Below, piece by piece: positions 1,441-64,000 of a stretch of DNA of 64,000 nt; the first letter of the stretch is position 1, and every line of letters begins with the position of its first letter. Made by a program: the position numbers and the translations under genes. The stretch is from Knoellia sinensis KCTC 19936 (GTDB lineage: Bacteria; Actinomycetota; Actinomycetes; Actinomycetales; Dermatophilaceae), in NCBI RefSeq assembly GCF_000768705.1, contig NZ_AVPJ01000003.1:1-64000 (forward strand). The letters run 5' to 3'. The notes beneath the pieces were generated by a model. That model saw only the letters and a program-made list of their open reading frames with translations. It had not been told where the DNA came from and searched no databases.

Positions 1441-1592
1441 GGACAGTCCTTGGAATCGTCGGTATGCCGGCCGGCCCAGTCTGGCAGGCAGTCACGTCCC
1501 ACACGTGGATTGCTCACATGGTGTCTACCGGGGCGGCAGGACTGCCTGACCAAGGTCGGCGAAGTAGCCGTCGTGGATTCCCCAGTGGTCTG

Positions 1593-2495
1593 TCAATCCA
1601 CCTCGACCGGCCGTGGCACTGCGGCAGCCTCCGCAGCTTCAAGGGCTGCCCAACCGGACTTCTCCGGTCCGGCAGTCTGCCCTTCGGGGCAGTGCGCCCT
1701 GAAGTCACACCACGTGCACAGGGGCCCCACCACTGGCGGGAACAACGTCGACTCGACGCCGCGCTCCGCGAAGTCCGCGTCGACCCTTTGAGCATCGCGC
1801 GCGATCGACTTCGCCTCATCGACCTTGCGGGTCAGCGACTCCGGGGTGTGCGTGTGTGACACCACCTCACCGGTGGGCACGTGGTGGAGCTCGACGCGAA
1901 GGCACGGGCGACGGAACATCTTCCAGACGGCAGCGGCATACAGGGCCATCGGCAAGGACGTGCGCGCGTCATCCTCGCCCAAGGGTTTCTGGCTCGTCTT
2001 GTAGTCCACGACCACGAGTTCGCCGTCGCGGTCGTCGAGCCGGTCGATGCGCCCCGTGACGCGCAGCGCCCCGCTCACGAACGAGACCGTTCGCTCGATC
2101 CCCTTGGGCTGGTCGTCCGGGTCGACACCTCCGAGGTATGCCGTGACGTGCTCCTGCGCCCGCTTGCGCCACTGGCTCGCCTGGTCCGGATCACGAAAAC
2201 CCACATCGATCCAGGACTGGCGCACCAGCTCGCGCCCGGCCGACGCCGTGCGGCGATCACGCGGCAGGTCCCACCAGTCCCGAAGCGCGTTGTGCACCGC
2301 CAGACCGAAGGAGGTGTGCGCCCGCTGCGGCCGGGCCTCCGGCCGCGGCTTGTCGAGGTATTGCATTCGATAACGGCGGGGGCAGTCGACGAGAGCAAGA
2401 AGCCGCGACGGGCTCGCGGCATACAACTTCGGCGGCATGCCCGCGAACTCCTGCTGGACCGGCCGCCCGGCGCCCACATCGCTCACCTGACTCAC
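1593..2495 (-). CDS. RecB-like PD-(D/E)XK nuclease with probable Fe-S cluster
   Basis: This 300-residue protein shows the RecB/Cas4-type nuclease core: GRIDRLD with Asp151, then VVVDYKTSQK with Asp164 and Lys166. Cys38 (in VDCPRRY) together with Cys260, Cys263 and Cys269 (CTWCDFRAHC) matches the four-cysteine iron-sulfur staple of AddB/Cas4-like nucleases. It is a stand-alone nuclease domain with no helicase part, like M. tuberculosis Rv2119. GTG 2495 is preceded by TAGGTT and six bases, so the mRNA may be leaderless; an in-frame GTG 15 bases downstream has a good GGGGAGG site. The role is presumably DNA repair. Confidence 0.85.
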   Translation of the reverse strand: MSQVSDVGAGRPVQQEFAGMPPKLYAASPSRLLALVDCPRRYRMQYLDKPRPEARPQRAHTSFGLAVHNALRDWWDLPRDRRTASAGRELVRQSWIDVGFRDPDQASQWRKRAQEHVTAYLGGVDPDDQPKGIERTVSFVSGALRVTGRIDRLDDRDGELVVVDYKTSQKPLGEDDARTSLPMALYAAAVWKMFRRPCLRVELHHVPTGEVVSHTHTPESLTRKVDEAKSIARDAQRVDADFAERGVESTLFPPVVGPLCTWCDFRAHCPEGQTAGPEKSGWAALEAAEAAAVPRPVEVD

Positions 2496-2549
2496 CTCCC
2501 CAACCTAGCCAGAGCGGCCGACACTGTCCGGCAACCATCCACAGGCGTG

Positions 2550-3440
2550 TCAGCTGAAGACGATGGTGCGGTCCTCGTTGAGGATGATCCGGCTCTCACA
2601 GTGCCACTTCACGGCACGCGCGAAGACCCTGGACTCCACTTCTTCGCCCGCCGCGACGAGGTCCTCCGCATTCATCCGGTGGTCGACCCGGTGGATGTCC
2701 TGCTCGATGATCGGCCCCTCGTCGAGATCGGCCGTGACGTAGTGCGCGGTCGCCCCGATGACCTTGACCCCGCGCTCGAACGCCTGGTGATAGGGCTTGG
2801 CACCCTTGAAGCTCGGCAGGAACGAGTGGTGGATGTTGATGACCCGCCCGCCGAGATCGCGGCAGAGGTCGTCGCTGAGCACCTGCATGTAGCGGGCCAG
2901 GGTGATCAACTCGACGTCGTGCTCGGCGACGAGTTCGCGCAACTGCGCCTCCGCCTCCGCCTTGGTATCGCGAGTGACGGGGATGTGGTGGAACGGGATG
3001 CCGTAGGACCTGGCCATCGGCTCGAGGTCGAGGTGGTTGCTCACGATGCCGACGATGTCGGCGTTGATCTGACCGGAGTTCCAGCGGAACAGCAGGTCGT
3101 TGAGGACGTGACCGAAGCGGCTCACCATGACAAGCATTCGGTATGCCGTGGCCGCCTTGCGGAGCTCCCACACCATGTCGAACTCGTCTGCGACAGAGGC
3201 GAACCCGCCCCTCCATTGATCCACGTCGACGTCGCTGTCGCCGGTAGCGAATCGCACGCGCATGAAATAGCGGCCGGTGCGGTGGTCGCTGAACTGCTGG
3301 CTCTCCTCGATGTTGGCGCTGCGCTCGTAGAGGTGCTGGCTCACCGCAGCGACGATGCCGGGACGGTCCGGGCAGGACAGGGTGAGGACGAGGTCACCCT
3401 CGTCCTCGGAACGGATGCGTCGGGAGACGCCTTCAGTCAT
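2550..3440 (-). CDS. purU: Formyltetrahydrofolate deformylase
   Basis: PurU hydrolyses 10-formyl-THF to formate and THF and so balances one-carbon pools. The 296-residue protein has an N-terminal ACT domain beginning LVLTLSCPDRPGIVAAVSQ, then a formyltransferase domain with NIHHSFLPSF and ITADLDEGPI-like segments around the catalytic Asn, His and Asp (here read as TADLDEGPIIEQD). The start chosen is ATG 3440 (MTEGVSRR), which overlaps the stop of the upstream PHP gene as ATGA and so implies translational coupling. A longer in-frame extension to 3488 lies inside that gene and is unlikely. Length and motifs are normal for the family. Confidence 0.95.
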   Translation of the reverse strand: MTEGVSRRIRSEDEGDLVLTLSCPDRPGIVAAVSQHLYERSANIEESQQFSDHRTGRYFMRVRFATGDSDVDVDQWRGGFASVADEFDMVWELRKAATAYRMLVMVSRFGHVLNDLLFRWNSGQINADIVGIVSNHLDLEPMARSYGIPFHHIPVTRDTKAEAEAQLRELVAEHDVELITLARYMQVLSDDLCRDLGGRVINIHHSFLPSFKGAKPYHQAFERGVKVIGATAHYVTADLDEGPIIEQDIHRVDHRMNAEDLVAAGEEVESRVFARAVKWHCESRIILNEDRTIVFS

Positions 3441-62423: not shown

Positions 62424-62732
62424 ATGAGCCGACAGTTGACTGATGAGGAGATCGAGCGCCAGCTCGCCGAACTGACGTTGTGGACGCGCGAAGGTGACGC
62501 CATCGTCGCGGACATCGAGGCACCGGACTTCCCCTCGGCGATCCGCATCGTCGCCGAGGCGGCCGAGGTCGCCGAGGAGATGAACCACCATCCCGACATC
62601 GACATCCGCTGGCGCAAGACGCACTGGCTGCTGACGACGCACGATGCAGGCGGCCTCACCCAGCTCGACATCGAGCAGGCACACCGGATCACCGAGATCG
62701 CGAAACGCCACGGGGTCGTCGTCGATGGCTGA
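62424..62732 (+). CDS. 4a-hydroxytetrahydrobiopterin dehydratase (PCD/DCoH)
   Basis: The 102-residue protein has the pterin-4a-carbinolamine dehydratase motif EEMNHHPDIDIRWRKTHWLL with the catalytic His pair, and a final LDIEQAHRITEIAKRHG helix. It regenerates pterin cofactors after aromatic hydroxylation; no phenylalanine hydroxylase is in the window, so the partner is unknown. ATG 62424 has GGAGG about ten bases upstream. It overlaps the next gene by eight bases (ATGGCTGA). Confidence 0.92.
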   Translation: MSRQLTDEEIERQLAELTLWTREGDAIVADIEAPDFPSAIRIVAEAAEVAEEMNHHPDIDIRWRKTHWLLTTHDAGGLTQLDIEQAHRITEIAKRHGVVVDG

Positions 62733-63456
62733 GGCCGCAGACCCCGCTGACCTCCTGGATCAGCACGACGAGCCACACACCGGCGGCTTCTACGAGCGGC
62801 TGAACTGGCTTCGAGCAGCGGTTCTGGGTGCCAACGACGGCATCATCTCGACGGCAGGAATCGTCATCGGTGTAGCAGCCGCGACGACCAGTCGCGCGAA
62901 CATCGCGACCGCCGGATTCGCCGGACTGGCAGCCGGAGCGATGAGCATGGCCGTCGGTGAGTACGTATCCGTCAGCACCCAACGGGATGCCGAGGTAGCC
63001 CTGCTCGCGAAGGAAAAGCAGGAACTGGAGGAGGATCCCGTCGCCGAGCTCGAGGAACTCACTCAGCTCCTGGCCGACAAGGGCATCTCGGACGACCTCG
63101 CCCGGCAAGTGGCCGTCGAGCTCACTGAGAACGACCCCCTCACAGCCCATGCCGAGGTGGAGCTCGGCATCGACCCCGAGGCCCTGACGAAGCCGTGGCA
63201 CGCGGCGTGGGCGTCGTTCTTCGCCTTCACGGCCGGAGCGATCCTGCCGCTCGTGGCAATCCTCCTCGTGGGAGTCACCGCCCGAGTCCCCGTGACCGTG
63301 GCCGCCGTCGTCCTCGCACTCATCGCCACCGGATGGATCAGCGCTCGCCTCGGCTCGGCTGAGATCTGGCCTGCGGTCCGTCGCAACGTCGTGGGTGGCC
63401 TGCTGGCGATGACGGTCACCTATGCGATCGGTTCCCTCGTCGGAACCCAGGTGTGA
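62725..63456 (+). CDS. VIT1/CCC1-family iron/manganese transporter
   Basis: The 243-residue protein has the VIT1 layout: RLNWLRAAVLGANDGIISTA in helix 1, GLAAGAMSMAVGEYVSVSTQ in helix 2, a cytoplasmic Glu-rich helical domain (EKQELEEDPVAELEELTQLL) that binds metal, then three more helices. Members move Fe2+ or Mn2+ out of the cytoplasm. ATG 62725 lies inside the end of the pterin dehydratase gene. The stop overlaps the amidotransferase start (TGATG), so three genes form an operon. Confidence 0.92.
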   Translation: MAEAADPADLLDQHDEPHTGGFYERLNWLRAAVLGANDGIISTAGIVIGVAAATTSRANIATAGFAGLAAGAMSMAVGEYVSVSTQRDAEVALLAKEKQELEEDPVAELEELTQLLADKGISDDLARQVAVELTENDPLTAHAEVELGIDPEALTKPWHAAWASFFAFTAGAILPLVAILLVGVTARVPVTVAAVVLALIATGWISARLGSAEIWPAVRRNVVGGLLAMTVTYAIGSLVGTQV

Positions 63457-64000
63457 TGCCGCGCTACCTCGTCATCCAGCACGAACCCGCAGCACCCGGC
63501 GGCTGGCTCGTCGAGCGCTGGTCCGAGCTCGGCAGCGCTGTCGAGACGATCCGCGGCGATCTCGGCGAGCCGATCCCGGCGCGTCTCACGCATGACGCCC
63601 TCGTGGTCCTCGGAGGGGCGATGAATGCCAACGAGGACGACCGCTACGCATGGCTCGCACCCACGAAGTCTCTGTTGCGCGCGGCGGTGGCGGACGGCAT
63701 ACCGACGCTTGGAGTCTGTCTCGGCCACCAGCTCCTCGCCGTCGCCCTCGGTGGCGAAGTCATCCGCAACCCGCACGGGCGCACGAGCGGACTGATTCCG
63801 TTGTCCCTCAACGCTGCTGGCGAGGCCGACCCATTGCTGAGCGGACTCTCAGGTCGCGAGGTCGTGCAATACAACGGCGACATCGTGAGTCGTCTGCCGG
63901 AGGGCGCCGAGTCGCTCGCGACCGCTCCAGACAGCTCTGTCCAGGCCGCCCGCTTCGGCCCCCGGGCGTGGGGCGTCCAGTTCCACCCGGAGACGACGCC
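63456..64000 (+). CDS. Class I glutamine amidotransferase (GMP synthase-like), cut by window end
   Basis: About 181 residues are present. The nucleophile Cys lies in TLGVCLGHQLLAVALGGEVI and the catalytic His in WGVQFHPETT, right at the edge; the Glu of the HPE triad follows it. Stand-alone class I amidotransferases of this type are annotated as GMP synthase-like or gamma-glutamyl hydrolase-like, with unknown acceptor. ATG 63456 overlaps the VIT1 gene stop. The CGGCATAC octamer near residue 82 encodes Gly-Ile with the rare ATA codon. Confidence 0.88.
   Translation, partial: MPRYLVIQHEPAAPGGWLVERWSELGSAVETIRGDLGEPIPARLTHDALVVLGGAMNANEDDRYAWLAPTKSLLRAAVADGIPTLGVCLGHQLLAVALGGEVIRNPHGRTSGLIPLSLNAAGEADPLLSGLSGREVVQYNGDIVSRLPEGAESLATAPDSSVQAARFGPRAWGVQFHPETT

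What the first reader, a model, noticed from the sequence alone, without database searches (positions are those of the whole stretch)
1462..63702. Octamer GTATGCCG occurs about 20 times more often than expected
Reading both strands by eye I count 27 copies of GTATGCCG (for example 1462, 3141, 4561, 9506, 12626, 18201, 25234, 41583, 53135, 62350) and 22 of its complement CGGCATAC (for example 1934, 7348, 16884, 26846, 36831, 48716, 63695). At about 69% GC the base composition predicts 2-3. Only three copies of the 7-mer TATGCCG lack the leading G. The next base is T in about half of the sites and never A. Both orientations are equally common, in genes and gaps. One copy per 1.3 kb is the density of DNA uptake sequences in Haemophilus and Neisseria. 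As far as I know none is described in actinobacteria. Alternatives are a nucleoid-protein, recombination or methylation site.
Basis: partly seen in the sequence, partly recalled or inferred. Interest (0 to 1): 0.85.

Follow-up and report, generated by a model that had tools for sequence, protein, structure and literature searches.

The report
Candidate actinobacterial DNA-uptake password sequence
An eight-letter DNA word is repeated about 2,500 times in this actinobacterium and is similarly common in dozens of its relatives, laid out like the self-recognition tags that some Gram-negative bacteria use when they take up DNA; if it is such a tag, it would be one of a kind that our paper searches did not find described in actinobacteria.

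Summary
The genome holds 2,485; the word read backwards 68. Forty of 71 same-family genomes are rich, none of 46 from other families of the order. It is not a codon effect: it is 3.5 times denser between genes, and 153 of 164 alignable sites are identical in a congener at 82% identity (scrambled words 28% and 19%). Sites between genes extend to GTATGCCGTcCGCtCnCcT with A's upstream; 11% of sites form inverted pairs; two ~20-kb sugar-polymer-type islands hold one site each; two genomes use GGATGCCG, one both words, one GTATGNCG. This is the anatomy of Haemophilus/Neisseria uptake sequences. Unexplained: same-orientation copies avoid each other within about 1-1.5 kb, opposite ones do not. Chi and KOPS fit poorly (no strand bias; RecC absent; E. 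coli Chi behaves oppositely). Best reading: a DNA-uptake signal, probability about 0.6.

The parts
1462..1469 (+). GTATGCCG, between genes
1934..1941 (-). GTATGCCG, in gene, sense
2136..2143 (+). GTATGCCG, in gene, antisense
2417..2424 (-). GTATGCCG, in gene, sense
3141..3148 (+). GTATGCCG, in gene, antisense
3940..3947 (+). GTATGCCG, in gene, sense
4366..4373 (-). GTATGCCG, between genes
4561..4568 (+). GTATGCCG, in gene, sense
6423..6430 (+). GTATGCCG, in gene, sense
7348..7355 (-). GTATGCCG, in gene, antisense
8693..8700 (+). GTATGCCG, in gene, sense
9486..9493 (-). GTATGCCG, between genes, left arm of an inverted pair
9506..9513 (+). GTATGCCG, between genes, right arm of the inverted pair
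9478..9521 (.). inverted motif pair, folds as an 18-bp stem with 8-nt loop (-34.3 kcal/mol), terminator-like
10135..10142 (+). GTATGCCG, between genes
11959..11966 (-). GTATGCCG, in gene, antisense
12626..12633 (+). GTATGCCG, in gene, sense
12740..12747 (+). GTATGCCG, in gene, sense
16516..16523 (+). GTATGCCG, in gene, antisense
16884..16891 (-). GTATGCCG, in gene, sense
17307..17314 (+). GTATGCCG, in gene, sense
18201..18208 (+). GTATGCCG, in gene, sense
19736..19743 (+). GTATGCCG, in gene, antisense
20994..21001 (-). GTATGCCG, between genes
22277..22284 (+). GTATGCCG, between genes, full extended consensus GTATGCCGTCCGCTCACCT
22440..22447 (-). GTATGCCG, between genes, full extended consensus GTATGCCGTCCGCTCACCT
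25234..25241 (+). GTATGCCG, in gene, antisense
25304..25311 (-). GTATGCCG, in gene, sense
26846..26853 (-). GTATGCCG, at a gene edge, inverted pair with 26873
26873..26880 (+). GTATGCCG, between genes, inverted pair with 26846
31682..31689 (+). GTATGCCG, in gene, antisense
33695..33702 (-). GTATGCCG, in gene, antisense
35529..35536 (-). GTATGCCG, in gene, sense
36831..36838 (-). GTATGCCG, in gene, sense
38180..38187 (+). GTATGCCG, in gene, antisense
39298..39305 (+). GTATGCCG, in gene, antisense
39706..39713 (-). GTATGCCG, in gene, sense
40792..40799 (-). GTATGCCG, in gene, sense
41583..41590 (+). GTATGCCG, in gene, antisense
42216..42223 (-). GTATGCCG, in gene, sense
46558..46565 (-). GTATGCCG, in gene, sense
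47779..47786 (+). GTATGCCG, at a gene edge
48218..48225 (+). GTATGCCG, in gene, sense
48716..48723 (-). GTATGCCG, in gene, antisense
51353..51360 (-). GTATGCCG, in gene, sense
53135..53142 (+). GTATGCCG, in gene, antisense
55789..55796 (-). GTATGCCG, in gene, sense
55889..55896 (+). GTATGCCG, in gene, antisense
62350..62357 (+). GTATGCCG, between genes
63695..63702 (-). GTATGCCG, in gene, antisense

Best explanation
GTATGCCG is the core of a DNA-uptake signal of natural transformation, of the same kind as the USS of Pasteurellaceae and the DUS of Neisseriaceae, but in an actinobacterial family. Shown: an asymmetric motif of about 30 bp (A-rich some 8-11 bases before the core, the core, then TcCGCtCnCcT) is scattered genome-wide in both orientations, is kept at orthologous places, is densest between genes, is scarce in two foreign-looking islands, and has dialects in relatives. 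Inferred: a surface protein of the Tad/Flp pilus or of the ComEA/ComEC machine binds it on free DNA, so DNA of relatives is taken up preferentially; because tagged alleles are imported and recombined more often, the word accumulates in the genome by molecular drive. Inferred from the spacing: the reading step treats the two strands separately and acts over about 1-1.5 kb, as if single strands were selected one at a time.
For: Density one per 1.6 kb, 1,251 forward and 1,234 reverse; both orientations balanced in every 100-kb block of 400 kb in each of two species. Denser between genes in own DNA, 1.70 against 0.48 per kb. Sixteen of 18 neighbouring pairs within 60 bp are inverted (32 of 283 sites; 10 pairs of any kind expected by Poisson), 12 of the 16 wholly between genes; the 7 of these 12 that I chose to fold make hairpins of -32.7 to -47.3 kcal/mol. 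Known uptake sequences: about 10% inverted repeats, more in non-coding DNA, no orientation bias (passages, PMC1939737). All four gaps over 7 kb in 464 kb lie in two ~20-kb stretches of surface-polysaccharide-type genes; known uptake sequences are under-represented in newly acquired segments (passages, PMC7811141). 153 of the 164 sites that lie in alignable DNA are identical in G007 (113 of 124 in genes, 40 of 40 between), scrambled words 28% and 19%; the other 70 of 234 sites lie in unaligned DNA. Dialects: GGATGCCG in G033 and G024, both words in G051, GTATGNCG in G011; Neisseriaceae also have dialects, a bilingual genome and family members without DUS (passages, PMC3630211). ComEC in G000 with ComEA before it; T2SSE-family ATPases in G000 and a Tad/Flp locus in a congener, G002; Flp pili are required for transformation in Micrococcus luteus (passages, PMC6370729).
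Against: No uptake experiment, and I do not know whether this organism is competent. ComEC is found in 111 of 117 genomes with or without the word, and 3 of the 40 motif-rich genomes have no ComEC match (G036, G040, G041: fragmented assemblies of 340, 330 and 760 contigs, 58, 81 and 95% complete). Same-orientation avoidance is not what an orientation-blind double-strand receptor predicts: in H. influenzae uptake did not depend on orientation of the site (passages, PMC1939737). Outside the own genus the excess between genes is not general: 2 of 32 GTATGCCG in 40 kb of G011 (18% non-coding), 4 of 28 in G019 and 2 of 15 in G067 (11% each). The line between rich and poor is not sharp everywhere (g16: 578 forward against a reversed control of 230).
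Confidence: 0.6

Rival explanations
1. A Chi-like recombination site: a helicase-nuclease (AdnAB type) reads the octamer on one strand at broken ends and switches to recombination; each orientation serves one direction of travel, which would explain why only same-orientation sites avoid each other.
For: The spacing pattern is what two independent directional site sets would give. PDDEXK_1 matches occur in 115 of 117 genomes, many of those listed in open frames of over 1,000 residues (capped list; AdnA and AdnB were not told apart).
Against: No strand bias in any 100-kb block. RecC, the Chi-reading subunit of RecBCD (recalled), has no match in G000 and its eight congeners and in 33 of the 40 motif-rich genomes (some assemblies are incomplete). 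E. coli Chi, a yardstick in 400 kb, behaves oppositely: same-orientation pairs cluster (35 at 60-1,000 bp, 15.8 expected), the strands are unequal (70 and 43), and only 4 of 113 lie outside called genes. The motif of about 30 bp is long for a Chi. The nuclease family is in motif-poor genomes as well.
Confidence: 0.15
2. Binding site of an intracellular DNA protein (nucleoid organiser, condensin loader or similar) selected for even coverage of the chromosome.
For: Strong site conservation and a protein-like footprint of about 30 bp.
Against: An organiser has no obvious reason to leave opposite-orientation neighbours at expectation while same-orientation ones are about halved; inverted pairs, dialects and at least five gains or losses in a LeuS sample of 24 labelled rows fit uptake sequences better.
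Confidence: 0.12
3. A modification or restriction recognition site, kept or driven by a methyltransferase or by motif-directed repair (as very-short-patch repair does for another site, recalled).
For: Some one-mismatch neighbours are rarer than expected (GTATGCTG 0 of 6.4, GTATGACG 3 of 13.7, GTATGGCG 4 of 11.3), which directed repair could cause.
Against: Repair does not explain the excess between genes, the flanks or the spacing by orientation; several other neighbours are at or above expectation.
Confidence: 0.05
4. FtsK/KOPS-type polar sequence that guides chromosome movement.
For: Asymmetric octamer in large number.
Against: Both orientations are about equal in each 100-kb block of 400 kb in two species.
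Confidence: 0.02
5. Codon or dipeptide effect (Tyr-Ala written TAT GCC) or composition artefact.
For: 101 of 201 coding sites are in the frame G|TAT|GCC|G.
Against: Denser between genes in own DNA; TAT is the rarer Tyr codon (498 against 1,931 TAC) and 101 of those 498 lie in the motif. What looks like a codon effect behaves differently: GGATGCCG in G106 has no excess between genes (ratio 0.8) and no spacing effect (189 same, 188 opposite).
Confidence: 0.01

Closest known systems
DNA uptake sequence (DUS) of Neisseriaceae, 5'-AT-GCCGTCTGAA-3'
   Same: Similar copy number (about 1,900 ten-mers in gonococcus and meningococcus, 943 to 5,918 among the dialects in the passages seen; 2,485 here), inverted pairs at terminators, dialects differing by single bases, a bilingual genome, family members without it. 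By chance or not, the extended consensus GTATGCCGTC contains ATGCCGTC of the DUS.
   Different: Different phylum and a monoderm (recalled); the CTG core common to all DUS dialects is not part of this motif; no equivalent of ComP identified; same-orientation avoidance not mentioned in the passages seen.
Uptake signal sequence (USS) of Pasteurellaceae
   Same: Short core with flanking A/T-rich segments, full length taken as 31 bp; about one per kb; hairpin pairs at gene ends; scarce in newly acquired DNA; evolves by point mutation (passages, PMC7811141). Even spacing has been noted for it (Karlin, as cited in PMC1939737).
   Different: Core sequence unrelated (recalled); orientation did not matter for uptake in H. 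influenzae; whether spacing depends on orientation there was not tested here.
Chi site of E. coli (GCTGGTGG, recalled)
   Same: Asymmetric, frequent octamer.
   Different: Unequal strands (70 and 43), 4 of 113 outside genes, same-orientation sites cluster.
Transformation system of Micrococcus luteus (Flp/Tad pili, ComEA, ComEC)
   Same: Homologous machinery is found here.
   Different: No uptake sequence is mentioned for it in the passages seen; its genome was not examined here.

Membership tests
DNA uptake sequences (DUS/USS) | Non-palindromic word at roughly one per 1-2 kb, far above expectation, genome-wide | tested here: met
   2,485 copies in 3,987 kb, reversed control 68; 283 against 13.1 in 464 kb
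DNA uptake sequences (DUS/USS) | Both orientations, no replication-strand bias | tested here: met
   117 and 117 in 400 kb of one contig, 131 and 138 in 400 kb of G007, all eight 100-kb blocks balanced; origin position unknown
DNA uptake sequences (DUS/USS) | More frequent in non-coding DNA | tested here: met
   own DNA 1.70 against 0.48 per kb, home-made gene caller; G033 dialect 2.3-fold; not seen in G011 (2 of 32 at 18% non-coding)
DNA uptake sequences (DUS/USS) | About a tenth as close inverted pairs that can fold as terminators | tested here: met
   32 of 283 sites; 7 of 7 folded pairs, chosen from 12
DNA uptake sequences (DUS/USS) | Scarce in newly acquired DNA | tested here: met
   all 4 gaps over 7 kb in 464 kb lie in two surface-polysaccharide-type stretches, judged by eye; prophages not tested
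DNA uptake sequences (DUS/USS) | Dialects and absences among relatives | tested here: met
   f19 GGATGCCG tested and rejected as a dialect; G009 unresolved
DNA uptake sequences (DUS/USS) | Competence machinery present | tested here: met
   ComEC, ComEA, Tad-type genes; not discriminating, also in genomes without the word; 3 of 40 rich genomes (fragmented) lack a ComEC match
DNA uptake sequences (DUS/USS) | A receptor that binds the word | tested here: inconclusive
   Flp/TadE/TadF-type pilins occur in rich and poor genomes; no candidate singled out
DNA uptake sequences (DUS/USS) | The word raises uptake or transformation | not testable with these tools
   needs an uptake experiment
Chi sites | RecC (Chi-reading subunit) present | tested here: not met
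   no PF04257 match in G000 and its eight congeners
Chi sites | Another helicase-nuclease that could read it | tested here: inconclusive
   PDDEXK_1 matches in 115 of 117 genomes, rich and poor
Chi sites | Strand bias and location in genes, as E. coli Chi shows | tested here: not met
KOPS / FtsK-orienting sequences | Polarity from origin to terminus | tested here: not met
Methylation / restriction site | Base modification at the site | not testable with these tools
   no raw long reads

The most novel reading that the evidence does not exclude
A third, independent origin of self-DNA uptake codes, and the first in a monoderm phylum: an ancient motif of the family that includes Ornithinimicrobium and Intrasporangiaceae members, lost several times, rewritten into dialects that would isolate genera genetically, and read strand by strand (perhaps through Tad/Flp pili and ComEA/ComEC), so that each strand keeps its own spaced-out set of tags.
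Probability: 0.45. Interest if true: 0.95.

Novelty: new variant of a known kind. Interest (0 to 1): 0.86.

Why it matters
Strong uptake preference is stated for two Gram-negative families only (PMC7811141, passages). A third case in actinobacteria would show that such codes arise outside outer-membrane bacteria, make the Tad/Flp pilus a candidate sequence-reading machine, mark dozens of little-studied genera as probably transformable, and give a tag that could make them genetically tractable. Dialects and losses within one family offer a natural experiment on how such codes are born, changed and lost. The same-orientation avoidance is a new clue to how the word is read and can be checked at once in complete Haemophilus and Neisseria genomes.

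Tried and rejected
Rejected: family f19 of the same order first looked like a second group, with GGATGCCG (2,229 + 2,262 in G106), but there the word has no excess between genes, no spacing effect and many over-represented neighbours, so I treat it as a codon effect; the class-wide survey with GKATGCCG (394 genomes) is therefore read with care, and outside f1 and f19 I saw no genome in its table that stood out clearly from the background of about twice the control. 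GTACGCCG in G030, G047 and G055 was not counted as a dialect (4 of 22, 3 of 9 and 0 of 15 between genes). G009 has a moderate excess of GGATGCCG (674 + 662, control 150 + 160) with 1 of 10 between genes in 20 kb: unresolved. ComEC, T2SSE ATPases, RecC and PDDEXK_1 do not track the word. A look by eye for a rich-only pilin in 20 Tad-region loci found none; my Flp pattern hit 16 of 20 loci (not G019, G067, G018, G066; G018 has an Flp that the pattern missed) and did not find all three pilins in each. Viral contigs: a 15-base extended form hits 35 stretches on 34 contigs, and none of these stretches is rich in the octamer (3 copies at most), so no virus carrying the code was seen there; phages of these hosts were not identified. 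A model in which a site imports DNA on one side only predicts that converging pairs avoid each other too; they do not, so I dropped it. Deletion between direct repeats could also deplete same-orientation neighbours; not tested. Papers: searches for an actinobacterial or Gram-positive uptake sequence were no paper; 1 each; 9; 20 of 33 listed; 7; none of the listings describes one in an actinobacterium by title or the shown start of the abstract; (the octamer as text) listed 20 of 643 papers, none relevant by title. Subscription journals are not held, so this is not proof of absence. Papers seen: passages of PMC6370729, PMC7811141, PMC1939737, PMC3630211 and PMC12236230; none read whole.

Full report
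1. Observation. The window holds 49 copies of GTATGCCG, 27 forward and 22 reverse, at the quoted places. Dinucleotide shuffles give 0.75 (largest of 100: 3); a third-order Markov model gives 2.3. With its complement it is the top octamer of the window and, with 283 against 13.1, of 464 kb of the same genome. The whole genome (G000, 3,987,063 bases, 61 contigs) has 1,251 + 1,234 copies; the word read backwards has 35 + 33.

2. Spread. Of 117 genomes (tallied by hand) 71 are of the own family (f1): 40 are rich (449 to 2,376 copies on the forward strand), four have 95 to 144 (one of them, G024, uses a dialect) and 27 have 67 or fewer (one of them, G033, uses a dialect). The nine genomes of the own genus are all rich. 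None of the 46 genomes of other families in the order has more than 88 on either strand, and the one with 88 (G089) has 91 and 93 of the reversed control. In a LeuS tree of 28 rows (two motif-rich loci, G015 and G046, gave no LeuS hit and were dropped; four rows are outgroups) the named loci lie among the f1 genomes, and the label rich/poor needs 6 changes, at least 5 on well-supported branches; shuffled labels need 8.2 on average and 25 to 37 of 500 shuffles need as few, so the label is only loosely clustered. As the same octamer occurs in widely separated lineages, an old origin with several losses is the simplest reading (inference). f1 is probably the family that GTDB calls Dermatophilaceae (recalled).

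3. Not codons. With a simple gene caller written for this purpose, 77 of 283 sites in 464 kb lie between genes, 201 in genes and 5 on edges: 1.70 against 0.48 per kb. In genes 114 are sense and 87 antisense; the two cheapest frames dominate (G|TAT|GCC|G 101; antisense as GCA|TAC 65). TAT is the rarer codon (498 against 1,931 TAC) and 101 of those 498 are in the motif. Against a general rule: in G011 2 of 32 sites in 40 kb lie between genes (18% non-coding), in G019 4 of 28 and in G067 2 of 15 (11% each), so there the excess between genes is not seen (these are small samples with a caller trained partly on own genes).

4. Anatomy. The 52 unpaired sites between genes share a longer, asymmetric consensus, cGTATGCCGTcCGCtC.CcT (T at +9 0.65, G at +12 0.71, C at +15 0.71, T at +19 0.65); A is raised at positions -10 to -7 (0.38, 0.32, 0.34, 0.40 over all 82 sites not wholly in genes; position 0 is the base before the core). 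In genes the same bases are raised above the level of the same codon position further away (T at +19: 0.32 and 0.33 against 0.09 and 0.06 in the two main frames), so this is recognition rather than codon usage. G007 of the same genus shows the flanks; other genera show parts of them, some hardly any. Of 18 neighbouring pairs within 60 bp (10 expected by Poisson) 16 are inverted, 12 of the 16 wholly between genes; the two direct ones lie in a repeat-bearing gene. The seven pairs that I chose to fold all make strong hairpins. Window example: 9486/9506.

5. Conservation. 67% of a 400-kb stretch aligns with G007 at 82.4% identity. Of the 164 sites in aligned DNA (of 234 in the stretch) 153 are identical: 113 of 124 in genes, 40 of 40 between genes. 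Four hundred randomly chosen scrambled words of the same letters are kept in 28% (4,834 places) and 19% (322 places). The sites are held in place strongly.

6. Gaps. Four gaps between neighbouring sites exceed 7 kb in 464 kb; they form two stretches of about 20 kb each with one site inside. By my reading of the translations much of their content looks like surface-polysaccharide clusters (chain-length determinants, glycosyltransferases, asparagine synthase-like, UDP-sugar dehydrogenase and epimerase genes), gene GC 0.54 to 0.69, mostly 0.60-0.66, in a 68% genome (no family search was run on them).

7. Dialects. G033 has 1,977 + 1,972 and G024 1,966 + 1,850 copies of GGATGCCG, with 14 + 12-type background (G033, forward 14) or few (G024, 126 + 109) GTATGCCG; G051 has both words (1,104 + 1,091 and 609 + 608). 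In 200 kb of G033 GGATGCCG is 2.3-fold denser between genes, has inverted pairs (10 opposite, 3 same within 60 bp) and shows the spacing effect; in 20 kb of G024 8 of 12 lie between genes. G011 accepts any base at position 6 (C 32, A 21, G 11, T 12 in 40 kb). The large numbers of GGATGCCG in family f19 are a different thing: in G106 no excess between genes (0.8) and no spacing effect.

8. Spacing by orientation. This is the most unexpected result. In own DNA, pairs 60-1,500 bp apart are 63 in the same and 133 in opposite orientation (p 6e-7, treating pairs as independent); G007, largely the same sites, 92 and 146; fifteen loci of other genera 68 and 114; G033 with its own dialect 102 and 150; the codon-type control G106 189 and 188; three other words in own DNA show nothing (0/2, 14/16, 7/12). 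The range varies: in the other genera the effect is confined to under 1 kb (30 same, 24 opposite at 1,000-1,500), in G033 it is weak under 500 bp (31, 37). In own DNA same-orientation pairs fall below expectation and opposite ones do not (500-1,000 bp: 17 and 43, 43 expected of each). Pooled without G007 the effect is gone beyond 2 kb, and converging and diverging pairs are about equal in number. Neighbours at 60-1,500 bp alternate in 276 of 403 cases, 204 +- 10 (largest of 2,000: 234) after shuffling orientations. Whatever keeps the word in place treats the two strands separately over about 1-1.5 kb. Even spacing has been claimed for known uptake sequences (Karlin, cited in PMC1939737), but the passages that I saw do not speak of spacing by orientation; one search found 5 papers with the terms and I looked into two of them. 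Possible causes: uptake or protection of single strands, a directional enzyme, or deletion between direct repeats.

9. Machinery. ComEC lies on G000:C15 with ComEA before it; by tblastn both are found in 23 of 24 loci examined, rich and poor, all but the Austwickia locus. T2SSE-family ATPases are found in all 117 genomes, four matches in G000; a Tad/Flp locus of the same gene order was seen in rich and poor relatives; the Tad locus of G000 itself was not read. In Micrococcus luteus Flp pili are needed for transformation (PMC6370729, passages). ComEC is in 111 of 117 genomes; of the six without a match three are rich but fragmented (G036, G040, G041). So the machinery does not separate rich from poor; a receptor that changes in sequence rather than in presence is a natural guess (inference).

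10. Rivals. Chi: no RecC match in the own genus and in 33 of 40 rich genomes (some incomplete); the PDDEXK_1 nuclease family is in 115 of 117 genomes, rich and poor; the motif has no strand bias; E. coli Chi clusters where this word avoids, and lies in genes. KOPS needs polarity and none was seen. A modification site cannot be tested here. A nucleoid protein remains possible.

11. Judgement. In the own genome it has every anatomical feature of a DNA uptake sequence that could be tested, so it probably works like one. The searches listed in Tried and rejected found none described in actinobacteria. Of ten window proteins scanned against Pfam eight match ordinary families (glycerophosphate oxidase type, MgtE, trypsin/PDZ protease, VanW, two peptide-binding proteins, BipA, peptide ABC transporter) and two have no match.

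Noticed in passing
window 44802-44877; also G000 contig 1 (L004-L017: 71555, 104453, 108514, 111791, 136224, 201969, 261322, 268847, 317442, 333036, 338909), G003 and G007: A family of 62-77 bp near-perfect palindromes (stem with TTGTGCCC...GGGCACAA, -57 to -71 kcal/mol for five folded copies), many copies in the genome; the five folded copies do not hold the octamer; REP-like or terminator-like.
   Followed up: partly
464 kb of G000 (window and L001-L020): One-mismatch neighbours GTATGCTG (0 of 6.4), GTATGACG (3 of 13.7) and GTATGGCG (4 of 11.3) are depleted, as if converted to or purged around the motif.
   Followed up: no
extended consensus, e.g. window 22277-22295: GTATGCCGTC shares ATGCCGTC with the Neisseria AT-DUS ATGCCGTCTGAA; probably chance.
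   Followed up: no
L134 (Hamadaea MAG, 17.4 kb): Palindrome GCGTACGC counted 38 times over both strands (19 places), 2.8 expected: a different over-represented word, reminiscent of HIP1 (recalled).
   Followed up: no
L091 (Arcanobacterium pluranimalium, 22.9 kb): CGTCGTCG 17 and CGACGTCG 16 over both strands, about 0.7 expected each.
   Followed up: no
f19 genomes, e.g. G106 (L143-L152): GGATGCCG and GATGCCGA are over-represented 5-fold and 3-fold; GGATGCCG shows no excess between genes and no spacing effect, so a codon-level effect is likely.
   Followed up: yes
f1 genomes: RecC matches are commoner in genomes that are not rich in the motif (16 of 31) than in rich ones (7 of 40); not corrected for kinship, and the 31 include two dialect users.
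   Followed up: no
L020, G000 contig 1 393480-393710: A called gene with 39-bp repeats that multiply the motif in one orientation, the only direct pairs within 60 bp.
   Followed up: no
G009 (g2) against G060 (same genus): GGATGCCG is 674 + 662 in G009 (control 150 + 160) but 342 + 272 in G060: dialect in the making or codon effect, unresolved.
   Followed up: no
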